A stretch of 25,882 nucleotides of DNA from the IMG/VR virus record IMGVR_UViG_3300042141_000130, positions 1-25,882 of that record; one strand, given 5' to 3'. The notes beneath the pieces are model-generated. The model was not told the origin of the DNA, searched no databases, and worked only from the letters and a program-made list of their open reading frames with translations. The position numbers were made by a program, and so were the translations under genes. Below, in pieces: positions 6,583 through 22,475 of this stretch (position 1 is its first letter; the number at the start of each line of letters is the position of its first letter). The stretch comes from a virus.

Positions 6583-8601
6583 GTGAAGTTTAAATTTCGC
6601 CCACTGCAACTGCTCCCATTGTTTATTTGGTTACTTCCTTTTTTTGCACAAACAGCATTTGCCGACACCCAACCAGGTTTGACATATACGGTTTGGGATA
6701 ACCGCACCGGACAGAACAACCAGTACAACGTAAGTCCGCCACTCCCACCAACCACACCGATCATCGCAACAGGTGTCGCACCACGCATTGAATATCAGTT
6801 TGGTGGCGGTCCGATCTTCGGCACAAACATATCCGAGGATGTCGTCGTCAAGTTTGAAGGCTGGATTGATCCACCAACCGACCAGATGTACTACTTGTGT
6901 GTCGCTTCGGATGACGGCGCGAAGATGTATTTAGACGGCGTGAATGTCATCAATGATTGGTATGACCGTGGCGGCGGATGCGGGCAGACAGCCGATGTTG
7001 ACTTCTCAAACGGTCAACCCAAACAAATGACAGTTTGGTATTACGAAAATGGTGGCGGTGCGCATGTCACACTTCTGTACTACACCGGCAACGGTTGGGC
7101 TGCTGCACCCGACTCGTGGTTTACAATTGACCAACCTGTCGTGACTACGACGACCACTTCCACCACAACCACAACGACGACAACCACCACCACAACATCG
7201 TCAACAACGACCACAACAACCCTGCCACCCACAACAACCACGGATTTGACGACAACAACGTCTTCCACGACAACCACAACTTCTTCAACGACGACGACCT
7301 CGTCAACAACAAGCACCCTGCCAGAAACCACAACCACGACCACAAGTTCATCTACGACAACCCTTCCCACATCAACGACCACAACCAGCGAACCAGTTCA
7401 GACAAGCACAACCACATTAGTTGAAAATACAACGACGTCCACGACCACAACAATTCAACCAGCCCCGACAACAACGCAAGCACCTTATACTCCCCCGCAA
7501 ACCACCACTACTAGTCCCACCATTGAGACTCAACCCGAACCAACCACACCCGTAACCGAAACCACAGTTGCCGAACCCGAAACATCTACAACCTATCCTG
7601 ACGAGCCTTTTCCCAATATTCCTGATCCAACTTCTGACGAGACTGTTCCCGATGAAACAGAGCAGCCAACAGACACAGAAATGCCACAGGAAGATACAGC
7701 AGAAACAGAGCAAGAACAAGTAGAGGATTCATTAGATGATTATACCCTCCCAGAAGACGGTGAGGCAATCATTGCAGAAGAACTGGATAGCATTATTGAT
7801 GAAGTATTTACTGAGGATGTTTCGGCAGATGTATTTGTAGAAACACTTACCACCTTGCTTGATGCTGAACTTACAGATGAGCAATTAACTGAAGTTCTAG
7901 ATTCTGCTTTTTCTGAAGAAGCCTCGGTTGAAAACATGGTTTCAGCATTGGATGAGATTCTTGACGGCCCGATAGATGCAGAAGATTTGGAAAAGGTAAT
8001 GGACGCAGTTTTTGACGGCGACCTGTCTGACGATGAAACAATTGCTCTTGCCGAAGAGGTGCTAAAAGGTGAATTGACTGCCGATGAGTTTGCCACTGTA
8101 ATTGACGCAATTTTTGACGAGAAAGTAACTGACAAAGTTCTGATTGAAACATTTACTGCTGTTTTGAAGACTGAGCTTGACAACGAGAAATTTGAAGAAA
8201 TAGTAAATGTCCTTGAATCAGAAACCATATCCAACGAACAAGTTGCTGAAGTAGTTACTTTGATTGTTGAACAGGAAGGTGGAGTTAATGCAGAACAGGC
8301 AACCGAACTCGCAACAAGTGAAAAAGTGTTGGAAAGCATTGACGGCGAACAAGCAACGAAAGTGTTTGATGCCGTGGTTGCGTCTGAGGTGTCGCCAGAG
8401 GATGGGTTAGCAATTTCAAAAGCCGTGCAAGAAGCGCCTAAAGAAGTTAGAAAAGCATTTGAAAAAGAACTTAATGTTTTTGAAGGTGTATTTGATGTGT
8501 ATGTCCCGATGGGTTCTAGAGTGCCAGTGGGTGATCGCCGTGTCATCGTCGGTGTGGGTGCTGTATTATTAAGTGTCCCAGTTCGCGTGCGAGTTGGGTG
8601 A
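6583..8601 (+). CDS. Exported PA14-domain protein with Thr-rich linker and 17-residue repeats
   Basis: 672 residues with a GTG start directly before a Sec signal peptide (MKFKFRPLQL, a hydrophobic core to about residue 25, likely cut after AQTAFA). Residues 30-183 resemble a PA14/GLEYA-type beta-barrel (VVKFEGWIDPPTD, YYLCVASDDGAKMYLDGVNV, WYDRGGG, MTVWYYENGGGAHVTLLY), a module that often binds carbohydrate. Residues 188-340 are almost pure Thr/Ser/Pro, like surface-protein linkers of Acidimicrobiia. Residues 345-400 are acidic, 409-561 hold nine tandem 17-residue repeats, and the C-terminus ends in a short hydrophobic, Arg-bearing stretch (VIVGVGAVLLSVPVRVRV) that may anchor it in the membrane. 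By hand count GC is about 52% at 6721-7140 and 40% at 7801-8220, suggesting a host-derived front half. It may be a secreted adhesin, superinfection-exclusion or virion protein. Confidence 0.85.
   Translation: MKFKFRPLQLLPLFIWLLPFFAQTAFADTQPGLTYTVWDNRTGQNNQYNVSPPLPPTTPIIATGVAPRIEYQFGGGPIFGTNISEDVVVKFEGWIDPPTDQMYYLCVASDDGAKMYLDGVNVINDWYDRGGGCGQTADVDFSNGQPKQMTVWYYENGGGAHVTLLYYTGNGWAAAPDSWFTIDQPVVTTTTTSTTTTTTTTTTTTSSTTTTTTLPPTTTTDLTTTTSSTTTTTSSTTTTSSTTSTLPETTTTTTSSSTTTLPTSTTTTSEPVQTSTTTLVENTTTSTTTTIQPAPTTTQAPYTPPQTTTTSPTIETQPEPTTPVTETTVAEPETSTTYPDEPFPNIPDPTSDETVPDETEQPTDTEMPQEDTAETEQEQVEDSLDDYTLPEDGEAIIAEELDSIIDEVFTEDVSADVFVETLTTLLDAELTDEQLTEVLDSAFSEEASVENMVSALDEILDGPIDAEDLEKVMDAVFDGDLSDDETIALAEEVLKGELTADEFATVIDAIFDEKVTDKVLIETFTAVLKTELDNEKFEEIVNVLESETISNEQVAEVVTLIVEQEGGVNAEQATELATSEKVLESIDGEQATKVFDAVVASEVSPEDGLAISKAVQEAPKEVRKAFEKELNVFEGVFDVYVPMGSRVPVGDRRVIVGVGAVLLSVPVRVRVG
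7807..8265 (+). repeat. Nine degenerate tandem 51-bp (17-residue) repeats
   Basis: The protein repeats every 17 residues, with single 16- and 18-residue units near the end. Examples are LDGPIDAEDLEKVMDAV, FDGDLSDDETIALAEEV, LKGELTADEFATVIDAI and FDEKVTDKVLIETFTAV. The consensus is [LF]-[DK]-x-x-[LIV]-[ST]-x-[DE]-x-[LF]-x-x-[VL]-x-x-[AE]-[VIL]. DNA identity between units is low, so the array is old. Each unit looks like one amphipathic helix and a turn. Confidence 0.8.
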
Positions 8602-11372: not shown

Positions 11373-12929
11373 ATGAGCGAAACACTAACTGACGAACAAT
11401 TACCAGAGGATTTAGTTGAAGAATTAGATGAAACCTCTGCTGAATTTGTAGAGCAACTCGTCACAAAGTTGGTTTTGTTTACAGAACAATTCTGTGACGT
11501 TGAGTTTTTCCCTTATCAAATACCCATTGCTTATCGGGTAATTGAGTCCATAGTGTTGGGAGATGGCGAAGAAATAACATTAATTGCAACTCGCCAAAGT
11601 GGAAAATCAGAAGTAATTTCTAATGTGCTTGCATCCATGATGGTAATACTTCCCAAATTAGCTCCTGTATACCCAACATGGTTATCTAAGTTTAGTAAGG
11701 GTTTTTGGTGCGGTGTATTTGCTCCCGTTGAAGACCAAGCCGATACGGTGTTTAGTCGCATAGTCAATCGTTTGACTTCAGACCACGCTTTGACGTTTTT
11801 ATTAGACCCAGAAATTGATGACACCACTAAAGCTGGTGGCACGCGAGGTAAGGGAAAGATTTTGGCGTTAAAGAACGCTGGGTCACTATGCCGTATGCAA
11901 ACTTGTAACCCTAAAGCCAAGATTGAATCTAAAACTTATCACTTTGTGTTAATTGACGAAGCTCAAGAAGCAGACGAATATGTGATTGCCAAATCAATCA
12001 AACCAATGTTGGCATTTAACAACGGAAGCATCATGTTGACTGGTACTGCTTCGCGCACCAAATCTTACTTTTACAAAATGATTCAATACAACAAGCGACG
12101 TATGACCAGTAGCAAAAAGAGCATGCGAGATTGTCATTTTGAATATGATTGGAAAGTTGCATCCAAGTACAACCAAAATTATTTGAAGTTTATTGCCAAA
12201 GAGAAGCTCCGTATTGGCGAAGATTCTGATGAATTTCAAATGTCGTATTGCAACCGTTGGATGCTTGAAAAAGGTATGTTCGTCACCGAAGAACGCATGG
12301 AGAGGTTGTACGAACCATCTATGCCGTTAGTCAAACAATGGTGGAGAACTCCTGTGGTTGCTGGTATTGACGTTGCTAGATCTAACGACTCTACGGTAGT
12401 AACCGTTGTCTGGGTGGATTGGGATCATCCAGACCCATTTGGTTTTTACGAACATAGAATCCTAAATTGGTTAGAAATTAACGACCAAGAATGGGAAAGT
12501 CAATACTTTCAAATTGTTGATTTTTTGCGCAATTACGAAGTTTGTAAAGTCGCCGTAGACGCCCAAGGTGTTGGTGGTGCGGTTGCCGAACGTCTTCAAA
12601 TCCTACTACCCCATATAGAAATAACGGCTACCTCATCTGATTCAAAAAGCCAAAATGAAAGATGGGTACATTTAACAGAATTAATACAAAGAGAACAACT
12701 TATTATTCCAGGGCATTCAAAAGCTCGTCGTACTAAAATGTGGAAAAGATTTAATCAACAAATGAACGATTTAGAGAAAGTTTATAAAGGTCCATATATG
12801 TTGGCGGAAGCTCCTGACGAAAAAGGAGCGTTTGACGATTACCCAGATTCCCTTGCTCTGGCGTGTTCTAACACTATTCATGACACCATGCCTACAATCC
12901 AAGTTGGGGAAAACCCGTTCTTTAAATAA
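11373..12929 (+). CDS. terL: Terminase large subunit (DNA-packaging ATPase/nuclease)
   Basis: 518 residues, a usual TerL length. ATPase domain: Walker A-like TRQSGKS (residues 73-79), Walker B with catalytic glutamate VLIDEAQ (192-198; D195, E196) and coupling motif TGTAS (223-227). RNase H-like nuclease domain: D333 in GIDVARS, D396 in VAVDAQG, and D489/D492 in FDDYPDSLAL. Together these show a complete packaging motor that pumps DNA through the portal and cuts concatemers. The start at 11373 has no Shine-Dalgarno sequence; TATCCT (11360-11365) ends seven bases before it, so leaderless translation is possible. The small subunit is not clearly identified; candidates are the upstream genes or the HTH-like gene at 16400. 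Confidence 0.96.
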   Translation: MSETLTDEQLPEDLVEELDETSAEFVEQLVTKLVLFTEQFCDVEFFPYQIPIAYRVIESIVLGDGEEITLIATRQSGKSEVISNVLASMMVILPKLAPVYPTWLSKFSKGFWCGVFAPVEDQADTVFSRIVNRLTSDHALTFLLDPEIDDTTKAGGTRGKGKILALKNAGSLCRMQTCNPKAKIESKTYHFVLIDEAQEADEYVIAKSIKPMLAFNNGSIMLTGTASRTKSYFYKMIQYNKRRMTSSKKSMRDCHFEYDWKVASKYNQNYLKFIAKEKLRIGEDSDEFQMSYCNRWMLEKGMFVTEERMERLYEPSMPLVKQWWRTPVVAGIDVARSNDSTVVTVVWVDWDHPDPFGFYEHRILNWLEINDQEWESQYFQIVDFLRNYEVCKVAVDAQGVGGAVAERLQILLPHIEITATSSDSKSQNERWVHLTELIQREQLIIPGHSKARRTKMWKRFNQQMNDLEKVYKGPYMLAEAPDEKGAFDDYPDSLALACSNTIHDTMPTIQVGENPFFK

Positions 12930-14954: not shown

Positions 14955-15167
14955 ATGACTGACGCTTGGGCAATAGTTATCGCTGCGTCTATTCCTGTTT
15001 TGGCTACAGGAATTGGTTGGGTAATAAAACTTTTGTTCAACCTTGCAAAAACAAACAGAGACGATCATAACAAGGTTATGGAAGAAATGCAAGTTTTAAC
15101 AAAAAGCGTCAAGAAGGTAGGAAAGAAACTAGATAAACACATAGATTGGCATGCATATGAAAAATAA
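14955..15167 (+). CDS. Small membrane protein, one helix plus coiled coil (holin candidate)
   Basis: 70 residues. One membrane helix near the N-terminus (residues 5-28, WAIVIAASIPVLATGIGWVI) is followed by a charged, coiled-coil-like helix (NRDDHNKVMEEMQVLTKSVK) and a His-rich end (HIDWHAYEK). This layout of one helix, then a cytoplasmic coiled coil, resembles the second small lysis-cassette membrane protein of actinophages (DUF2746-like). It starts 2 bases after GP88 and overlaps the next membrane protein, which is followed directly by the endolysin. A holin or holin-modulating role is inferred from this context. Confidence 0.78.
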   Translation: MTDAWAIVIAASIPVLATGIGWVIKLLFNLAKTNRDDHNKVMEEMQVLTKSVKKVGKKLDKHIDWHAYEK

Positions 15168-15441
15168 AGATTTGCTTGTTAATGTCCTTCTTAGAATCCT
15201 TGCAACATTTGCGGCATCAGGTTTGGGCGTAATTGGTGCAGGAGCAATCGCTGGAGTTCCGTTGTGGAAAGCCTGTTTTATGGCAGGAATTGCAGGCGTG
15301 GCATTTGTTGTTGAAGGTTTGTCTCGTTCATTCTTAGATGATGGTAAACTTACGCTTTCTGAAATCAACGACGTCTTCAATAAAGTAGACGGAAAAGATT
15401 CAACAGTAGAAGAAAAACCAACAAAACCAAAGGCTAAATAA
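15151..15441 (+). CDS. Holin-like two-helix membrane protein
   Basis: 96 residues, or 94 if the ATG at 15157 is used; neither start has a clear ribosome binding site and both lie within the previous gene's end. Two membrane helices (about residues 11-33, VLLRILATFAASGLGVIGAG; and 38-57, WKACFMAGIAGVAFVVEGLS) precede an EF-hand-like acidic stretch (DDGKLTLSEINDVFNKVD) and a Lys/Pro-rich tail. This matches small actinophage holins, which open the inner membrane so the endolysin can reach the wall. Its stop overlaps the endolysin start by one base (TAATG), making a compact lysis cassette. Confidence 0.85.
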   Translation: MHMKNKDLLVNVLLRILATFAASGLGVIGAGAIAGVPLWKACFMAGIAGVAFVVEGLSRSFLDDGKLTLSEINDVFNKVDGKDSTVEEKPTKPKAK

Positions 15442-16208
15442 TGAACAAAGTTGCTTGGGATTATATTGTTCCTATTAAAATGCCAGCCGATTTGAAAGGA
15501 GTTGAACCTGGAAAACTGCCCGAATCATTACTCAGAGCAATCCCAACAGGAGGAAAACTCCACTGGCTTGCAGCAAACGCATGGAACGCAATGGTCGCCA
15601 AAGCCAAAGCCGACGGAATTGAACTCAAGCCCACGTCATCTGGCGACCTCTATCGCAGTTACGAGTCGCAACTGGCGAGTTTTAAACAGCGCTACGTTCT
15701 GGAACCAATTCAGGGAACCAGCACAAAAACATTTGAAGGAAAAACTTGGTACCTGAAAAAAGGTATGGCAATGCTTGCCACCCCAGGAAAATCAAATCAT
15801 AATCTTGGTCTTGCCGTTGACGTGCACTCAGCAAGTGAGCCAAAGCGTCTTAATTGGTTAATTGCCAATGTTAAAGATTTTGGATTTTCGTGGGAAGTGG
15901 TTCCCAGCGAACCTTGGCATTTGCGCTACGTATGTGGTGATACACCACCTCCAGCCGTTGTTGCTTATGCTGCTGGGCAACCAGCACCTGCTGCAAGCAC
16001 AGCAGCAGCTCCGGTAGCTGACGTTTCTAAGGACGCAAACAAAGAACTTCAACAAGCCCTTAAAGACAAAGGTTTTTACAACGGGGCAATTGATGGCGAT
16101 CTTGGTCCAAAAACTCAAGAAGCTGTCAAAGCGTTCAAGGTTGCAAACAAGCTTAACGCCGACTCCGTCGTTGGTCCAAAAGTAAAAGAACTTCTAGGCC
16201 TAAATTAG
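15441..16208 (+). CDS. Endolysin: M15 (VanY-type) peptidase with peptidoglycan-binding domain
   Basis: 255 residues. Residues 30-167 form an M15 D,D-carboxypeptidase/L-alanyl-D-glutamate-peptidase-like zinc domain: YRSYESQ (residues 71-77), SNHNLGLAVDVH with zinc ligands H120 and D127, and EPWHLRYV with catalytic E157 and ligand H160. A Pro/Ala linker (170-195) leads to a PG_binding_1 domain (200-255: ELQQALKDKGFYNGAIDGDL, GPKTQEAVKAFK, VVGPKVKELLGL). It cleaves peptide links in the host wall at lysis. There is no signal peptide, so it needs the upstream holins to cross the membrane. Sampled codons are more GC-rich than in several neighbours. The gene overlaps the holin gene by one base. Confidence 0.95.
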   Translation: MNKVAWDYIVPIKMPADLKGVEPGKLPESLLRAIPTGGKLHWLAANAWNAMVAKAKADGIELKPTSSGDLYRSYESQLASFKQRYVLEPIQGTSTKTFEGKTWYLKKGMAMLATPGKSNHNLGLAVDVHSASEPKRLNWLIANVKDFGFSWEVVPSEPWHLRYVCGDTPPPAVVAYAAGQPAPAASTAAAPVADVSKDANKELQQALKDKGFYNGAIDGDLGPKTQEAVKAFKVANKLNADSVVGPKVKELLGLN

Positions 16209-16259: not shown

Positions 16260-16403
16260 ATGCGGGTTTCAGACATTGATCTAATAGTTTATTTCTTACG
16301 AAAAGTTTATCCAGGAAAAATGGAAGAACAAAAGTTAGTAGACTTAATAGACAAGCTGTTGTTGGAGAAAAAAAACAAATTGGCTAAAAAGGAACCAAAA
16401 TGA
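16260..16403 (+). CDS. Tiny hypothetical protein, likely leaderless
   Basis: 47 residues (MRVSDIDLIVYFLRKVYPGK, then a Lys/Leu/Glu-rich helix ending KEPK). The ATG lies six bases after the TAGTAT -10 element and no Shine-Dalgarno sequence is present, which fits leaderless translation. The stop overlaps the next ATG (ATGA), so it may serve to couple translation into the HTH-like gene. The second half is probably one basic amphipathic helix. No family recognised. Confidence 0.62.
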   Translation: MRVSDIDLIVYFLRKVYPGKMEEQKLVDLIDKLLLEKKNKLAKKEPK

Positions 16404-16693
16404 CAAAAGGTACACAAGAAGAAACGCTTCTTTCAAAATTAGCGGTGATGTCAAAATCAGTTGAGGCACCTTGTCCGTTGGGGAAGATTTACAAAAGATT
16501 GGACAAAGAGACAGCGCAGGCTTTTCTGTCAGCGTTACAAAGTCCGGCCTCATCAAGCGAAATACACAGGGCTTTAATTTCAGAAGGATTTTCAATATCA
16601 AGAACCACAATCAACCATAAACGTCATTGTTTTAAAGCGGGAACAGATGATCAATGTTTATGCTTTCCGAATAACTTGGAGAACAAACAATGA
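16400..16693 (+). CDS. Helix-turn-helix-like small protein
   Basis: 97 residues with ATGA overlaps at both ends. The core, LDKETAQAFLSALQSPASSS followed by EIHRALISEGFSISRTTINH and KRHCF, has the spacing of a helix-turn-helix: a first helix, then IHRALISEG, a turn, and a recognition-like helix ISRTTINHKRH. Proteins with this pattern, ending in a basic His/Arg/Cys stretch, are common small DNA-binding proteins in actinophages. It could be a transcription regulator of its own operon or the missing small terminase subunit; sequence alone does not decide. Further cysteines (C50 region, QCLCF) could bind metal. Confidence 0.65.
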   Translation: MTKGTQEETLLSKLAVMSKSVEAPCPLGKIYKRLDKETAQAFLSALQSPASSSEIHRALISEGFSISRTTINHKRHCFKAGTDDQCLCFPNNLENKQ

Positions 16694-17859
16694 GTAATTT
16701 GCAAAGCAAATTAAATAACATCACGTCTGAACAAGAAAAGAAACAACGCAAAGATAAATTGCTTAGTTCTTTGGCAGACGTGTTACTGGAAAAAGACATT
16801 GATGTATCGGAGATAGGTGACCTTAAGAAAGTTACTGTTACACAACGTTTTTCTAAAGACAAAGAAGGAGAACCACAAACCCAAGAAACAGTTGTTGTTC
16901 AACTGTCTCCTAGATGGGAGGTTGGTCCAGAGTGGCCGTTGGTTAAACAAGGTCCATCTTTTAAAATTCCTGTAAACAAAACGTCGTCTAAACCAGTTAC
17001 TGGTTTTAAAACGTGTGTTGTTGTTCCTGATTTACAAATAGGTTTCTATCGTGGTAGGTCTGGAGAATTAGAAGCAACCCATGACGAAAAAGCAATCTCT
17101 GTTTCATTGGCAATAATCAAAACAGTAAAGCCAGAAGTAATTGTTTGTGTTGGTGACAATTTAGATTTACCAGAAATGGGAAAGTATCTTACATACCCAG
17201 CGTATGCACAAACAACACAGGCATCAATTGACAGAGCAACTGCTTTTTGTGCAGAGATGCGAAACGCTGCTCCAAACGCGCAAATTGTTTGGTTAGCAGG
17301 TAACCACGAAGAAAGAATGCCTAAATATTTACTTACTAACGCTGGCGCTGCTTATGGGTTGCGAAAAGGAAATATCCCAGAATCTTGGCCCGTATTGAGT
17401 GTTCCATATCTTTGCCGAATGGATGAATTTGGTGTTGAGTACCGACCAGGGTATCCAGCTTCAGATTTTTGGATTAATGAAAAACTTCGTGTTATTCATG
17501 GAGATAGAGTTAAGTCAAGTGGTTCAACTGCTCACGTATATCTCAACCAAGAAAAGACATCGGTAATTTATGGACACATTCACAGGATTGAAACTGCATA
17601 TAAGACTAGAGAAGACTTTGACGGTCCTCGCACAATCATGGCGGCGTCGCCTGGTTGTCTCGCTCGCATTGATGGTGCTATCCCTTCTACTAAAGGTGGT
17701 GTAGATTTAGATGGGCGTCCGTTGGTTCGGTATGAGAACTGGCAGCAAGGTCTTGGTGTAGTTACTTATGAAGACACTGGAGCACATAAGTTTGCTTACG
17801 AAGTAATTCCAATTTACGATGGTTGGGCAATGTACCACGGCAAAGAGTACAGTGCTTAA
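16690..17859 (+). CDS. Calcineurin-like metallophosphoesterase
   Basis: 389 residues. About 105 N-terminal residues, partly charged and helical, precede the catalytic domain. The five metal-binding blocks are visible: D114-L-Q116 (VVPDLQIGF), G155-D156-N157 (CVGDNLDL), G204-N205-H206-E207 (LAGNHEER), H270-G-D (VIHGDRV) and G295-H296-I-H298 (YGHIHRI). The usual first-block DxH is DxQ here, a variant also common in other phage members (PDTQ type). The family hydrolyses phosphate mono- or diesters with two metal ions; substrates may be nucleic acid, nucleotide or phosphoprotein. GGAG (16679-16682) serves as ribosome binding site and the start overlaps the HTH-like gene by four bases. Confidence 0.9.
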   Translation: MSNLQSKLNNITSEQEKKQRKDKLLSSLADVLLEKDIDVSEIGDLKKVTVTQRFSKDKEGEPQTQETVVVQLSPRWEVGPEWPLVKQGPSFKIPVNKTSSKPVTGFKTCVVVPDLQIGFYRGRSGELEATHDEKAISVSLAIIKTVKPEVIVCVGDNLDLPEMGKYLTYPAYAQTTQASIDRATAFCAEMRNAAPNAQIVWLAGNHEERMPKYLLTNAGAAYGLRKGNIPESWPVLSVPYLCRMDEFGVEYRPGYPASDFWINEKLRVIHGDRVKSSGSTAHVYLNQEKTSVIYGHIHRIETAYKTREDFDGPRTIMAASPGCLARIDGAIPSTKGGVDLDGRPLVRYENWQQGLGVVTYEDTGAHKFAYEVIPIYDGWAMYHGKEYSA

Positions 17860-17864
17860 AACAC

Positions 17865-18500
17865 ATGACAACAATTATTGCTATTCAAGGAGATGGGTTC
17901 TCAGTAATTTGTGCTGACTCTCGTATTAGTGATTCTTACTCTGATGGATTGATATCTCAAATAGGAACTTTGCGTGAAGGTTCTGGAAAAGTGGCTGTCA
18001 ATGGAAAATACTTATTGGCAACTGCTGGCGACCTTAGAGCAATCAATATTCTTCAACATGTATTTCAACCACCTACGCCAACACCCAACACTAAAGGTAA
18101 AAAACTAGATCAGTTTATTACTAGCAAATTCATTCCGGCACTAAGAGAATGTTTTGATTCTCAGGGATACTCAGTTCCTGATCGTGATGATAAAGAACAT
18201 ATGGCTGAGCAAGGGTCAACTATTCTTTTGGCAATCAACGGAACTCTGTACTTAATTGATGGGGATTATTCGTGGTATTCCGACTTTACAGGACTTTACG
18301 CAATTGGCACTGGTTCGTCATACGCTCTTGGGGCATTACAAGCTTTAGTGCACAATAAAAAGCAGACGGTAAACCAAGCAAAATCCAACGCTATAAAAGC
18401 CATTGCAATCTCTGCTAAGTTTGACCCATACACGGGTGCGCCTTATCACACCTTTGTGCAAGAATACGAAGTGCGCAGTAAATCGCGTAAACCTGTATAA
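17865..18500 (+). CDS. HslV/proteasome beta-like Ntn-hydrolase peptidase
   Basis: 211 residues from the ATG at 17865. This start places Thr directly after Met (MTTIIAIQGDG), as in HslV (MTTI...), where Met removal exposes the catalytic Thr1. D18 in VICADSRIS then corresponds to mature Asp17, and K42 in GSGKVAVNGKYLLATAGD to the active-site Lys, allowing for a short insertion. Later features also fit: STILLAINGTLYLID, YAIGTGSSYALGALQAL (compare IGSGGPYA in HslV) and AIAISAKFDPYTG. Known relatives form ring peptidases fed by an ATPase; none is encoded here. Similar proteins occur in other actinobacterial phages without assigned function. The start lacks a good ribosome binding site. It lies two genes before the portal. 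Confidence 0.82.
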   Translation: MTTIIAIQGDGFSVICADSRISDSYSDGLISQIGTLREGSGKVAVNGKYLLATAGDLRAINILQHVFQPPTPTPNTKGKKLDQFITSKFIPALRECFDSQGYSVPDRDDKEHMAEQGSTILLAINGTLYLIDGDYSWYSDFTGLYAIGTGSSYALGALQALVHNKKQTVNQAKSNAIKAIAISAKFDPYTGAPYHTFVQEYEVRSKSRKPV

Positions 18501-18528: not shown

Positions 18529-18780
18529 ATGAAAACAGCTCATGTAGACGCAACAGCAAAAGGAGCCTTGTTAGGCTTGTTGACATATGTCGGCACAAAA
18601 TACGACGTTTCAGCAGAAGTAGTAGCTGCCTGTGTTCCAGTAGCAGCGCTTGCTTTGTCATTTATTTCAACTAAAATCGGTGACAAAAACACAACCATGT
18701 TGATTGACTTGGCTACTAAAGCCGTAGCCGCAGCCCCAGCAAAGCCTGTTGCCAAAAAAGCCCCAGCAAAAAAGAAGTAA
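18529..18780 (+). CDS. Small membrane protein with Lys/Ala/Pro tail (holin-like)
   Basis: 83 residues with a strong Shine-Dalgarno sequence (AAAGGAG, 18515-18521). A hydrophobic segment at residues 11-23 (KGALLGLLTYVGT) and a longer one at 31-49 (VVAACVPVAALALSFISTKI) suggest one or two membrane passes. The last 20 residues are a basic tail (AAPAKPVAKKAPAKKK) like those on histone-like proteins or holins. It looks like the small holins of actinophages, but it is separated from the endolysin by 2.3 kb and sits beside the Ntn peptidase and portal. A second holin or a head-assembly membrane helper are both possible. Confidence 0.65.
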   Translation: MKTAHVDATAKGALLGLLTYVGTKYDVSAEVVAACVPVAALALSFISTKIGDKNTTMLIDLATKAVAAAPAKPVAKKAPAKKK

Positions 18781-18810: not shown

Positions 18811-20505
18811 ATGCCTATTGATTTTTGGTCTCCGTCTTATAGGGCTGCATCTAGCGACTTAACAGTTGCTATTAGTCCTTTAGGACTAGTTGAACTTGCC
18901 GACGAAGAGTTTGAAGTTCACGGCCCACGCCTTAATCGCTATTCGGCTGCATGGGCTTGGTATCTAGGACACCACTGGTCATACCGTCGTGAGATGGGCG
19001 ACAACAACATAACGATGAACTATGTCCGAACAATGTCGGACTTCATCACCAATTTTTGTTTTGGTAAAGGAATTCAATTTAAAGTTCCAGAACAAAATCA
19101 AGCAATCATTCCACGACTTCTTCACGAGATTTGGGATAATCAAAACAACAAGCATTATCTGCTTTGGCAGATGGGGCAACTAGCCAGTGTTACTGGAGAT
19201 TGTTTTGTAAAAGTTGCGTATGATGAACCGTACACGGATGGTGCTGGCGTTATGCGCCCTGGACGTGTTCGCATTTTGCCTCTTAACCCAGCGCACTGTT
19301 TCCCTGAATATCACCCACATGATCGTGAACGTTTGCTGCGGTTTAAACTTAAATATCGGTTTTGGGGTACATCTCCAGAAGGTACTCGTCAGGTTTACAC
19401 CTTTACAGAAATCCTTACCGACGAATTAGTTCAACAATATGTAAACGACGAGCTAATTGATTCATATCCAAACCCAATTGGAACAGTTCCTATTGTTCAT
19501 ATTCCAAACATCACAATCACTTCATCACCTTGGGGTCAATCAGACATCTGGGATGTAATCCAACTAAACCGTGAGTTGAATGAAAAGATGACTGAAGTTT
19601 CAGACATCATTAACTATCACGCTGCTCCCGTAACAATTATCACTGGTGCAAAAGCAAGCCAACTTGAGCGAGGTCCAAAGAAAGTTTGGGCTGGTTTGCC
19701 AAAGGATGCACAAGTATTTAACCTTGAATCTCGTGGAGAAATGGCTGGAGCTCTTGAGTACATCCAGATGATAAAGAGAGCAATGCATGAAATTACTGGT
19801 GTTCCAGAAACAGCATTGGGACAATTTCAACCAGTATCTAACACTTCTGGTGTTGCTTTAGCAATTCAGTATCAACCTTTAATGAACCGTTATCAAATGA
19901 AGAAAGTTCACTTTACTAATGGTTTAGAGAAACTTAATGAAATTATCATTAGAACAGCGGCGGTGTTTATGCCAGAACTTTTAATGTACGACCCATCACA
20001 ATCCGCAATGCCGGAAGCAGATCAACTAACTCAATTAGATCCAATGGACCCAAATACATATAAGACAACAATCCATTGGCCAGAACCCCTTCCTGTTGAT
20101 GCTCTTATCAAACTTAATGAAGCACAAGCAAAGATGGCCTTAGGTATTGAGTCTAAGAAAGGTGCGCTTCGTTCATTAGGTGAAGAGTTCCCGAATGAGA
20201 AGATGATTGAAATTTTTGATGAACTTATGGACGATGCAATTGATCAAGGTGCACTTGATATGGTACGTGCACAGATTGGTCAAGCAGTGATGCTTGCTAC
20301 GGGCCTATTGCCTGATGCCTCTGGTATGCAAACGACTTCTGCTGGAGGTGCTAATGTATCTAGTGCGGGAAGTTCGGGAACGGGCGGACCGCTTCCAGGT
20401 GTTGGTGGTATTCCACCAATTGAGGAAGATCTAATTAATAAAATGACTAGTCGGGCATATGGCGCAAGGTTTGCACAGCGTCGTATTCCTGATGAAGACA
20501 AATAA
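18811..20505 (+). CDS. Portal protein (SPP1 gp6-like)
   Basis: 564 residues, within the portal size range, with an AAAGAGG ribosome binding site (18798-18804). Typical features are an N-terminal wing start (WAWYLGHHWSYRREMGDNN, ITMNYVRTMSDFITNFCFGK), SVTGDCFVKVAYDEP, the hydrophobic IPIVHI-like core (TVPIVHIPNI), and the stem/crown helices after PETALGQFQPVSNTSGVALA. The C-terminal 50 residues are Gly/Ser/Pro-rich and flexible. Portals form the dodecameric ring at one capsid vertex through which TerL threads DNA and to which the neck attaches. Position before scaffold and capsid genes is the standard order and supports the call. Confidence 0.93.
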   Translation: MPIDFWSPSYRAASSDLTVAISPLGLVELADEEFEVHGPRLNRYSAAWAWYLGHHWSYRREMGDNNITMNYVRTMSDFITNFCFGKGIQFKVPEQNQAIIPRLLHEIWDNQNNKHYLLWQMGQLASVTGDCFVKVAYDEPYTDGAGVMRPGRVRILPLNPAHCFPEYHPHDRERLLRFKLKYRFWGTSPEGTRQVYTFTEILTDELVQQYVNDELIDSYPNPIGTVPIVHIPNITITSSPWGQSDIWDVIQLNRELNEKMTEVSDIINYHAAPVTIITGAKASQLERGPKKVWAGLPKDAQVFNLESRGEMAGALEYIQMIKRAMHEITGVPETALGQFQPVSNTSGVALAIQYQPLMNRYQMKKVHFTNGLEKLNEIIIRTAAVFMPELLMYDPSQSAMPEADQLTQLDPMDPNTYKTTIHWPEPLPVDALIKLNEAQAKMALGIESKKGALRSLGEEFPNEKMIEIFDELMDDAIDQGALDMVRAQIGQAVMLATGLLPDASGMQTTSAGGANVSSAGSSGTGGPLPGVGGIPPIEEDLINKMTSRAYGARFAQRRIPDEDK

Positions 20506-20556: not shown

Positions 20557-21360
20557 ATGGCAAAGCGAGAAACAGATGAAATCACCATCCCTGCAGTTGC
20601 AGTTGATGCGTTTAATGAGGCGGCTCAACAAGTAGCCCCAAGTAATCAAGTTACCCCAACGGGTAAAATCTTTTCTGAAACAGATGTGGAAAACATCCGT
20701 AAACAGGAAAAAGACAAGATGTACAAGCGTCTTGAAGAAGCCGATGCACGAGCAAAGGCCATGGAAGAGCAACTTAAAGTACTTGCTCAAGACCGTGAAG
20801 AAGCTATTAAAAAAGCTGAAGAAAAAGCCCGTGCTGAGGAAGAAATCCGCAAACAACGTGAGTTTGAAGAACTTACCTCTAAGCAATTGTTGGCCAAAAC
20901 CGAAGATGAGTTCAATGCCAAAATTAAGAACATTGACGCTGAATGGCAAGCTAGGTTTGCGGCAATTGAAGAGGATCGCAAGTCGCAGCAAGCATTGCTT
21001 GATAAAGAACGCGAATTGCGCGAATTAGAAACCTATCGTCAGCGCAAGATTCACGAGGAACAAGAGAATATCATTCCAGAATTGATTGATCTTGTCGCTG
21101 GTAACACCATTGAAGAGGTAGACGCTTCAGTAGATATCTTGCGCCAACGTAGTGCTGCTATACTTCAAAGTGTCCAACAAGCGACGCAACCACGCCAACT
21201 TAAAGGCGTATCGGTTACTTCGCCAGTGTCTGGACCAATGGAAAACCAACAGGAATACCAAACGTTGAACTCGGATGACATCCGAAACATGACAATGGAC
21301 CAGTATGTTAAAATGAGAGACAGGCTATTAAGTTCACGATCCAACAAGGGTCGTTTTTAA
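20557..21360 (+). CDS. Scaffolding-like capsid assembly protein
   Basis: 267 residues with TAGGAG upstream (20542-20547). It is highly charged and dominated by a long coiled coil, about residues 40-165 (KQEKDKMYKRLEEADARAKA, KKAEEKARAEEEIRKQREFE and onward). The C-terminal part is less charged (IIPELIDLVAGNTIEEVDAS), ending with MTMDQYVKMRDRLLSSRSNK. Lack of catalytic motifs, coiled-coil architecture and position between portal and major capsid protein are those of phage scaffolds, whose C-terminus binds the capsid protein and which leave the prohead before or during packaging. No protease domain is fused, so removal would need another route. Confidence 0.83.
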   Translation: MAKRETDEITIPAVAVDAFNEAAQQVAPSNQVTPTGKIFSETDVENIRKQEKDKMYKRLEEADARAKAMEEQLKVLAQDREEAIKKAEEKARAEEEIRKQREFEELTSKQLLAKTEDEFNAKIKNIDAEWQARFAAIEEDRKSQQALLDKERELRELETYRQRKIHEEQENIIPELIDLVAGNTIEEVDASVDILRQRSAAILQSVQQATQPRQLKGVSVTSPVSGPMENQQEYQTLNSDDIRNMTMDQYVKMRDRLLSSRSNKGRF

Positions 21361-21395: not shown

Positions 21396-22475
21396 ATGGC
21401 AATTCCAGGCCCACAAGGTGGAGCAATTACAGGAGCAGGTCTTACGTCAGTAACGACTACAGGCTACTCAAGTGATGCAACACTCTCACCAGCAATTCAA
21501 CAGATTTGGTCAAAAGAAATTTTGTTCCAAGCAATGCCGGTTCTTCGTTTTGAACAGTTCGCAGTAAAGAAAACAGAACTTGGTGTAATGCCTGGTTTGA
21601 CAATTAACTTCATGCGCTATTCAAACTTGTCAACAGACGAGGCTGTAGGTGCAACTTTGACTGAAGGTGTACGCATGGAGCCAGTGGCTCTTTCAGCATC
21701 ACAGATTCAAATCACGGTTGGTGAACAAGGACAGGCTCTTGCAGTAACTGAACTTCTCCTCAACGCATCGTTTGATGACGTAATGGCATCTTCAAGCCGC
21801 TTGCTTGGTCGTCACATGGCACAGTCAATGGACATTCAAGCTCGCAACACTCTCTACCAGAATGCAGTTCCATTCTCTGGTGGTGCAGCAGTTCCACCAA
21901 GCGTCGTGTTTGGTCGCAACGTTCAATCGGGTGCTCGTACAACAATTTCACCATACGATGCAGGTACCGTAGGTACATACAGCAGTCCAGGTTACTTGTC
22001 ACCTGCAGCTATTAAAGATGCAGTTGAAATCCTTGCTGGTCAGAACATCCCACGTCTTGGCGACACTTATGTTTGCTTCGTTCACCCATCACAAAGCCGT
22101 GCGCTTCGTGACTGGCCAGAATTCATTGAAGTAACTAAGTATGCTGCCCCAGGCAACTTCATGCTCGGTGAAATTGGTCGTATCTACGACGTAGTGTTCA
22201 TTGAGACAACTCAAGTTGTTGCAGGCGGCGGTCCTGCAGACCTTGTATCAGGTACAACTGGTGCACAGGCTCCAACAGCAACTTCATACAGCGCCATCAT
22301 GATTGGTGACAACGCTTTCGGTCACGCTATTGCATTGCCAGTAGAACTCCGTGACGGTGGTGTCATTGACTTTGGTCGTGAGCATGGTCTTGCTTGGTAC
22401 GCAATTTGGGGCTTCGGTATGATTACTGGAGAATCCCGTGTTGTGATTAACACCAAGGGTGGAGCAATCGCCTAA
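21396..22475 (+). CDS. Major capsid protein, N4-gp56 family
   Basis: 359 residues with a strong TAGGAG ribosome binding site (21380-21385). The sequence follows the N4-gp56 capsid family: an N-terminal arm, then LSPAIQQIWSKEILFQAMPV, LRFEQFAVKKTELG, PGLTINFMRYSNLS, GATLTEGV, the hydrophobic ITVGEQGQALAVTELLL spine region, LGRHMAQSMDIQARN, YVCFVHPSQSRALRD, and APGNFMLGEIGRIYDVVFIE. The family has the HK97 fold and forms the icosahedral shell. Clean codon use and a hairpin right after the stop fit a very highly expressed gene. No protease-type delta domain is present. Confidence 0.93.
   Translation: MAIPGPQGGAITGAGLTSVTTTGYSSDATLSPAIQQIWSKEILFQAMPVLRFEQFAVKKTELGVMPGLTINFMRYSNLSTDEAVGATLTEGVRMEPVALSASQIQITVGEQGQALAVTELLLNASFDDVMASSSRLLGRHMAQSMDIQARNTLYQNAVPFSGGAAVPPSVVFGRNVQSGARTTISPYDAGTVGTYSSPGYLSPAAIKDAVEILAGQNIPRLGDTYVCFVHPSQSRALRDWPEFIEVTKYAAPGNFMLGEIGRIYDVVFIETTQVVAGGGPADLVSGTTGAQAPTATSYSAIMIGDNAFGHAIALPVELRDGGVIDFGREHGLAWYAIWGFGMITGESRVVINTKGGAIA

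What the first reader, a model, noticed from the sequence alone, without database searches (positions are those of the whole stretch)
17865..18500. Phage HslV/proteasome-beta-like peptidase beside the head genes, without an unfoldase
The sequence shows Met-Thr at the start, Asp18, Lys42 and the IGTGSSYA loop, matching the order of catalytic and structural residues in HslV and proteasome beta subunits. No HslU, Mpa or other AAA+ partner is in the window. The gene lies just upstream of portal, scaffold and capsid, where many phages keep the head-maturation protease, and the scaffold has no fused protease domain. It could be a new type of prohead protease, a peptidase borrowing a host ATPase, or a stand-alone host-takeover factor.
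Basis: partly seen in the sequence, partly recalled or inferred. Interest (0 to 1): 0.78.

Follow-up and report, generated by a model that had tools for sequence, protein, structure and literature searches.

The report
Swappable proteasome-like peptidase in actinophages
A virus of (very probably) freshwater actinobacteria carries a small proteasome-like protein-cutting enzyme of an already described family; its place beside the capsid genes is not good evidence that it matures the capsid, because sister viruses with the same capsid genes do without it.

Summary
Window 17865-18500 (+) encodes a 211-aa proteasome-like (HslV/BPH-type) Ntn hydrolase: Pfam Proteasome over cut-off, confident AlphaFold model (pLDDT 86, pTM 0.83), best Foldseek match BPH, then HslV. 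Thr2, Asp18 and Lys42 are invariant in 104 of 104 distinct homologues.

The prohead-protease idea fails. (1) In phages with the same portal family, the slot between a metallophosphoesterase (MPE) and the portal gene holds either this gene (38 of 64 loci) or an unrelated ~98-aa ORF (24 of the other 26, 0 of the 38). (2) The capsid protein has the same short N-terminus with or without it. (3) Relatives also occur beside MPE and WhiB genes, or elsewhere, in contigs lacking this portal family; three such records have an S78-type protease. (4) Head adjacency changed at least three times on the tree.

Best reading: a mobile, non-structural infection factor, probably an ATP-independent ring peptidase like BPH, probably co-translated with the MPE. 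It misses the HslV equivalog cut-offs and is not PPH. Proteasome homologues in phages were described by Fuchs et al. 2021. Novelty is modest: an actinophage lineage and its genomic context.

The parts
17865..18500 (+). Proteasome-like (HslV/BPH-type) N-terminal-threonine peptidase, 211 aa
17868..17870 (+). Codon for Thr2, the predicted nucleophile (Thr1 after Met removal); invariant
   Evidence: 104 of 104; aligned ranges start at model residue 2 and residue 1 of BPH chain 5ovs_A
17916..17918 (+). Codon for Asp18 (Asp17 of proteasome/HslV numbering)
   Evidence: 104 of 104
17988..17990 (+). Codon for Lys42 (Lys33 equivalent; 8 residues of extra loop before it)
   Evidence: 104 of 104
18162..18218 (+). 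Residues 100-118: extended, acidic pore-loop region (19 aa, net charge -3), aligned by phmmer with the pore-loop stretch of BPH
   Evidence: low-confidence part of the model
16690..17859 (+). Calcineurin-like metallophosphoesterase (phrog_20266); its stop lies 5 nt before the peptidase ATG; the most constant neighbour
16400..16693 (+). 97-aa ORF (phrog_1738, unknown function) overlapping the MPE start; within 3 kb upstream of the peptidase in 48 of 94 loci
15441..16208 (+). VanY-type endolysin with peptidoglycan-binding domain
15151..15441 (+). Holin-like small membrane protein (phrog_443 holin 6.8e-7; but phrog_26427 'nuclease' 4e-21)
18529..18780 (+). 83-aa hydrophobic ORF with a Lys-rich tail between peptidase and portal; no family
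18811..20505 (+). Portal protein (PF05133, phrog_64)
20557..21360 (+). Scaffold-like all-helical protein, no protease domain seen
21396..22475 (+). Major capsid protein (phrog_1357); short N-arm, no long N-terminal pro-region
11373..12929 (+). Terminase large subunit

Best explanation
The gene encodes an apparently intact proteasome-like N-terminal-threonine peptidase of the HslV/BPH kind. Inferred working: the host methionine aminopeptidase removes Met1; Thr2 becomes the nucleophile with Asp18 and Lys42; subunits assemble into a closed BPH/HslV-like ring with internal active sites; peptides or unstructured proteins are admitted past an extended acidic pore loop without a dedicated phage unfoldase. 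It is a non-structural, dispensable cargo gene of actinobacterial phages, probably translationally coupled to a metallophosphoesterase and inserted in a variable slot that in this lineage happens to lie before the portal gene. It most likely acts in the host cytoplasm during infection (protein turnover or host takeover), not on the capsid. Shown: fold, catalytic residues, contexts, absence from part of the phages with the same head module. Inferred: activity, ring assembly, ATP independence, cytoplasmic role.
For: Fold and active site. Pore loop: 19-20 aa, net charge -1 to -4, in 93 of 93 homologues of at least 55% identity, aligned with the loop of T. denitrificans BPH; BPH is a tetradecameric ring with an elongated acidic pore loop and no apparent unfoldase (PMC5777263, abstract and passages). 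Coupling to MPE: within 1.5 kb upstream in 104 of 119 loci; spacing -4 to +5 nt in 73 of 81 distinct sequences that have an MPE hit nearby. Cargo: alternates with a ~98-aa ORF (24 of 26 against 0 of 38); no copy elsewhere on 9 of 9 contigs lacking it in the slot. Mobility: head-adjacent placement needs 4 changes (gains or losses) on the tree, at least 3 forced by well-supported branches. Actinophage hosts: WhiB gene in 19 of 23 records.
Against: No activity, oligomer or expression data. Four large phages with a relative encode an AAA_2 ATPase, so energy-dependent work with a partner is possible there, and a host ATPase cannot be excluded anywhere. By VIA-align, proteasome beta, BPH and HslV chains are tied, so the fold alone does not favour BPH. 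The BPH paper's passages imply no activity on the model substrates tried, so likeness to BPH predicts little about substrates. In the window's lineage the gene stands among late genes, which fits a late role as well as a takeover role. The most distant relatives have shorter, less acidic loops (12-18 aa, net -2 to 0, 11 of 11). The window record itself, a 25.9-kb fragment, has no WhiB match.
Confidence: 0.6

Rival explanations
1. New type of prohead (head-maturation) protease that trims scaffold, portal or capsid protein of this phage.
For: Portal within 1.5 kb downstream in 95 of 122 loci; no S78 or S49 protease found in the 8 head-linked contigs; scaffold without protease domain.
Against: Same portal family without the gene in 26 of 64 and 9 of 59 loci, mostly with an unrelated ORF in its slot; capsid, scaffold and portal N-termini alike; capsid without a pro-region; relatives in contigs without this portal family, three records with an S78 protease.
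Confidence: 0.05
2. Peptidase that borrows a host AAA+ unfoldase (HslU, Mpa/ARC, ClpX/ClpC) or, in large phages, a phage AAA_2 ATPase, to degrade folded host proteins.
For: HslV-like fold; full-length AAA_2 matches (PF07724, 172-182 bits) in 4 of 18 records, all large phages with a relative; the two scanned have a ClpB_D2-small domain.
Against: None in the window or in 8 of 8 head-linked contigs, nor in two other large records with a relative, G004 and G006; in the four that have it the ATPase gene lies 56-61 kb from the peptidase gene (coordinates); the long acidic pore loop is the BPH trait that goes with lack of an unfoldase. Docking residues were not tested.
Confidence: 0.22
3. Not a processive protease but a specific protein-processing or ligating enzyme (connectase-like chemistry) acting on one phage or host protein, possibly in a step shared with the MPE.
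For: Tight spacing with the MPE gene; connectase shows that the fold can ligate (PMC8665760).
Against: Model has no S3/S4 insertion and has the first helix pair that connectase lacks.
Confidence: 0.1
4. Decaying or selfish passenger gene without function.
For: Patchy presence.
Against: Catalytic residues invariant in 104 of 104 distinct homologues; start tightly spaced from the MPE stop.
Confidence: 0.03

Closest known systems
BPH, Betaproteobacteria proteasome homologue (5ovs, 5ovt, 5ovu; PMC5777263)
   Same: Best PDB match by sequence (E 5e-4) and by Foldseek (2.5e-11); Z 19.0-19.1; Thr nucleophile at the start; extended acidic pore loop; no known unfoldase.
   Different: 18-24% identity; phage-borne; loop less acidic; quaternary structure unknown here. 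VIA Z values of proteasome beta and HslV chains are tied with it (17.8-19.3 over the 50 rows shown).
HslV (ClpQ)
   Same: Fold, Thr/Asp/Lys triad, GSG-type loop.
   Different: 27.2 and 25.6 bits against equivalog cut-offs of 137 and 157.75; no HslU-class ATPase in the window; longer pore loop.
AAH and PPH groups of proteasome homologues in phages (Fuchs, Alva, Lupas 2021, PMC8665760)
   Same: Phage-carried HslV/BPH-like homologues, no AAA+ partner found, context unexplained. Plasmid relatives fall in rhizobia, Paraburkholderia and Streptomyces (21 records), close to the range named for AAH.
   Different: PPH has ~140 residues and lacks helix H2; this one has 211 and both H1 and H2. The paper found no actinobacteria-specific phage with AAH; whether this is AAH could not be tested.
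phrog_1040 'peptidase HslV family'; Microbacterium phage Pumpernickel gp135; Moorella phage MTATph1; Geobacillus virus E3; Psychrobacter phage D'Alembert
   Same: Relatives by tblastn; the window protein and the MTATph1 protein match phrog_1040; same catalytic residues.
   Different: 24-33% identity; beside or near ThyX, DHFR and thymidylate synthase, or small ORFs of unknown function, not head genes.
Salmonella jumbo phage pSal-SNUABM-04 HslV genes (PMC7823757, passages)
   Same: Phage HslV-type genes reported without HslU.
   Different: Not compared in sequence here.

Membership tests
Proteasome superfamily (PF00227 / proteasome-like Ntn hydrolases) | Whole-protein Pfam score over the gathering cut-off | tested here: met
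   31.3 against 22.4 bits; the six-frame pieces alone are under it
Proteasome superfamily (PF00227 / proteasome-like Ntn hydrolases) | Proteasome-like fold | tested here: met
   (model range 2-203, Z up to 19.3)
Proteasome superfamily (PF00227 / proteasome-like Ntn hydrolases) | Thr1/Asp17/Lys33 triad | tested here: met
   T2, D18, K42 in 104 of 104
Proteasome superfamily (PF00227 / proteasome-like Ntn hydrolases) | Oxyanion-hole glycine (Gly47) | tested here: met
   G55 in the window protein and in 99 of 104; the five others have Ser; equivalence by position in the alignment, not by a residue-level structural match
HslV | NCBIfam equivalog cut-offs (NF003964, TIGR03692) | tested here: not met
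   27.2 against 137; 25.6 against 157.75
HslV | HslU partner encoded in the same phage | tested here: not met
   PF07724: 0 matches in the window and in 8 of 8 head-linked contigs, which may be fragments
BPH | Long acidic pore loop between H2 and the next strand | tested here: met
   19-20 aa, net charge -4 to -1 in 93 of 93 of at least 55% identity; 12-18 aa and -2 to 0 in the 11 others
BPH | Tetradecameric double ring | not testable with these tools
   no oligomer prediction or experiment available
PPH (proteasome homologue of phages and their hosts) | ~140 residues, helix H2 absent | tested here: not met
   211 aa, H57-65 and H78-99 both present; definition from PMC8665760
AAH | Sequence clustering with AAH references | not tested
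   reference sequences not at hand; only the host range of plasmid relatives is suggestive
Connectase | Two-helix insertion between S3 and S4; first helix pair absent | tested here: not met
   strands 20-24 and 30-35 adjoin; H57-65 and H78-99 present
Phage prohead protease | Needed by the head module it accompanies | tested here: not met
   26 of 64 and 9 of 59 loci with the same portal family lack it; genomic inference, not an experiment
Phage prohead protease | Member of a known prohead protease family (S78, S49, S77) | tested here: not met
   the protein's only Pfam family over cut-off is PF00227
Phage prohead protease | Capsid or scaffold cleaved in the virion | not testable with these tools
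   needs virion mass spectrometry; no pro-region seen in the capsid protein

The most novel reading that the evidence does not exclude
Actinophages carry a phage-specific proteasome branch as a plug-in infection module. A ring peptidase made together with a metallophosphoesterase (a possible dephosphorylate-then-degrade pair) acts on host proteins without an unfoldase. The alternative ~98-aa protein in the same slot does a complementary job (for example delivering targets to a host protease), and in 104-216 kb relatives the peptidase works with a phage AAA+ ATPase as a phage-encoded proteasome-like machine.
Probability: 0.1. Interest if true: 0.75.

Novelty: new member of a known kind. Interest (0 to 1): 0.36.

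Why it matters
Proteasome homologues in phages had no known function in the 2021 survey, which reported no informative gene context and no actinobacteria-specific phage with AAH (PMC8665760). Those are testable handles on function.

Tried and rejected
Prohead protease: rejected. HslV proper: rejected. PPH and connectase: rejected with the definitions. Defence system: no PADLOC match for 5 proteins. Cellular origin: one pattern-based scan of genome contigs gave 1 relative, on a contig of a 'Gammaproteobacteria' MAG with homologues of the window's phage genes around it, probably a stray phage contig; that scan would miss distant relatives such as those on plasmids. T4-type protease PF03420: 0 of 21, but no control rang, so uninformative. 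A Pumpernickel-based contig scan found nothing. A first tree counted rows of unknown context as a group and overstated the changes, without them, is the one used. Literature searches of the PMC library: among the listings shown I saw no functional study of a phage proteasome homologue; lists were capped at 20, and two listed phage papers that hold one of the terms (PMC8953757, PMC11841896) were not opened. Term searches in the Dishui Lake paper that published DSL-LC01 as a metagenome assembly with a predicted host (PMC10611076) and in two freshwater actinophage papers (PMC6802176, PMC10202952) found no 'HslV' in the main text. Supplements were not readable.

Counts and dropped rows: one search used 139 loci after leaving out 14 duplicates and 6 database phage records; loci too short for a given distance are left out of that denominator. 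One search used 202 loci (104 distinct proteins, several from the same contig at different flanks) and skipped 5 partial or reversed ones. In one search the WhiB label came from a motif search within 1.8 kb; L083 was missed by it and relabelled by hand from its annotation. One search dropped loci of unknown context and 8 others (7 distant relatives and a duplicate). The two main scans by the peptidase kept only the best 80 of 169 and of 538 or more relatives, so linkage counts lean towards close relatives of the window. The two portal scans kept 80 of 448 and 80 of 568 or more; they share contigs (three of the 26 loci lacking the gene lie on contigs already counted), and the slot profile was built from three ORFs loci.

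Full report
What is there. The ORF at 17865-18500 (+) starts with ATG 5 nt after the stop of a metallophosphoesterase gene (MPE, 16690-17859) and encodes 211 aa. It scores 31.3 bits with Pfam Proteasome (cut-off 22.4) and E 2.9e-24 with phrog_1040, 'peptidase HslV family'. The closest solved relative by sequence is BPH (5ovs, E 5e-4). An AlphaFold2 model on an alignment of 46 sequences is confident (mean pLDDT 86.4, pTM 0.83). Its best Foldseek match is BPH (2.5e-11), then HslV (2.1e-10); by VIA-align proteasome beta, BPH and HslV chains are tied (Z 17.8-19.3 in the 50 rows shown, 164-178 residues, rmsd 2.6-3.6 A). The aligned ranges begin at model residue 2 and residue 1 of the BPH chains, so Thr2 stands where the nucleophile should be. 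T2, D18 and K42 are invariant in 104 of 104 distinct homologues, as are G148, G150 and A154.

What kind it is. It is not HslV: the equivalog models score 27.2 and 25.6 bits against cut-offs of 137 and 157.75. It is not PPH, the ~140-residue phage group that lacks helix H2, nor connectase. It is a homologue of the HslV/BPH kind, nearest to BPH by sequence and Foldseek. Between helix 78-99 and strand 119-124 it has an extended loop, 19-20 aa with a net charge of -1 to -4 in 93 of 93 homologues of at least 55% identity. That loop aligns with the acidic pore-loop stretch of BPH, which has no apparent partner unfoldase. Eleven more distant relatives have shorter and less acidic loops. Relatives on plasmids of rhizobia, Paraburkholderia and Streptomyces (21 records) resemble the range given for AAH, but AAH reference sequences could not be compared.

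Who carries it. WhiB, described as restricted to actinobacteria and their phages (PMC6802176 and PMC10611076, passages), is present in 19 of 23 records examined (22 virus records and the MAG; the window fragment itself has none). So the hosts are very probably Actinomycetota. DSL-LC01, the closest named phage (44% identity), is a metagenome assembly whose Actinomycetia host is predicted (PMC10611076, passages). The 2021 survey had found no actinobacteria-specific phage with AAH; whether this lineage is AAH is open.

Is it tied to the head? Three contexts occur. (A) MPE - peptidase - portal - scaffold - capsid, as in the window. (B) MPE - peptidase - WhiB, often with lysis-type genes (endolysin, holin-like) upstream and none of this head module's genes downstream. 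(C) neither neighbour; in the three such loci read by eye (L080, L120, L121; contigs of 169-216 kb) the surroundings look replication-related (an SSB-like ORF, not family-searched). Among 139 loci the MPE lies within 1.5 kb upstream in 104 of 119, and the portal within 1.5 kb downstream in 95 of 122; of the 15 loci lacking the MPE, 14 have room to show a portal and none has one. The MPE-peptidase spacing is -4 to +5 nt in 73 of the 81 distinct sequences with an MPE hit nearby, so the two are probably co-translated. Portal family phrog_64 is found in 8 of 20 contigs, only the head-linked ones, so the same peptidase family rides on phages with other heads. On a tree of 48 representatives context A needs four changes (gains or losses), three of them forced by well-supported branches.

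The decisive test was the reverse one: start from the head and ask whether the peptidase is there. Of 59 portal loci with at least 2.2 kb upstream, 50 have it and 9 do not; none of the 9 contigs (four of 70-99 kb, five of 6-37 kb) has it elsewhere, while both positive controls rang. In a second scan, seeded mostly by portals from phages lacking it, 38 of 64 have it and 26 do not. The slot between MPE and portal then holds a ~98-aa ORF (phrog_25889-like in the one that matched a family, unknown function) in 24 of these 26 and in 0 of the 38. Scaffold and capsid genes were found in 25 and 23 of the 26. Because of its seeding, 26 of 64 is not a prevalence estimate; the exclusion pattern is what matters. 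Capsid proteins of six loci lacking the gene are 76-86% identical to the window's, those of the loci with it 78-100%, and all start with the same short N-arm, without a pro-region to be cut off. The scaffold is modelled as helices only. Among records with a relative outside this head context, three hold an S78-type protease (3 of 21 searched); in DSL-LC01 three genes annotated as capsid maturation protease stand beside the capsid gene at 63.8-68.7 kb while the peptidase gene lies at 38 kb. No S78 or S49 protease was found in the 8 head-linked contigs, which fits a head that matures without proteolysis, but by itself would also fit the head-protease reading. On the whole I give that reading 5%.

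How it most likely works. Shown: fold, invariant active site, co-occurrence and tight spacing with MPE, absence from part of the phages with this head. Inferred: Met removal exposes Thr2; subunits form a ring with internal sites; the long acidic loop controls entry, so peptides or unstructured proteins are taken without a dedicated unfoldase; the product is a non-structural infection factor. I give this 0.6. The main rival is use of a host or phage AAA+ ATPase (0.22). Four of 18 records, all large phages with a relative (104-216 kb), encode a full AAA_2 match; the two scanned have a ClpB-type small domain. Two more records have sub-cut-off matches. In the four, the ATPase gene lies 56-61 kb from the peptidase gene (coordinates), and none occurs in the window or in 8 of 8 head-linked contigs.

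Novelty. Phage-borne proteasome homologues, the lack of an AAA+ partner and the unknown function were published in 2021 (PMC8665760; sections 3.1 to 3.3 and Discussion read); a jumbo-phage paper noted HslV without HslU in 2020 (PMC7823757, passages). BFVD holds 36 viral structural matches at E 0.001 or better. The finding is a new member of a known kind. Its added value is the actinophage lineage, the near-constant MPE neighbour, the alternating slot, and the case against a head role.

Noticed in passing
L232:3682-5109 (-), L235:2629-4050 (+), L234:3441-4865 (-), L233:3183-4358 (-): Four 104-216 kb phages with a peptidase relative encode an AAA_2 ATPase of 391-475 aa with an unassigned N-terminal part (ClpB_D2-small domain in the two scanned), near a gene that looks RecA-like by eye; a possible unfoldase or an assembly ATPase.
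   Followed up: partly
L209 and L225, between MPE and portal; same slot in 24 of the loci L236-L301: A ~98-aa ORF of unknown function that alternates with the peptidase in the MPE-portal slot.
   Followed up: partly
window 15151-16208: Lysis-type genes (holin-like ORF, VanY endolysin) sit between terminase and portal; in many context-B loci they lie upstream of MPE and the peptidase, away from head genes.
   Followed up: partly
L085, L086, L087, L160, L162 (and L161): The rhizobial/Streptomyces/Geobacillus branch of the family has Thr-Ser in place of the Ala-Gly at the oxyanion hole position (GFTSSFR against GAAGDVR) while keeping Thr, Asp and Lys: perhaps a different chemistry.
   Followed up: no
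window 6583-8601: 672-aa ORF with a long Thr-rich tract; homologues occur near this gene cluster in several loci.
   Followed up: no
G009:C1:63979-64419: An S78 capsid-protease match lies inside an uninterrupted open frame of 3988 aa in a 140-kb phage, which suggests a giant fused protein.
   Followed up: no
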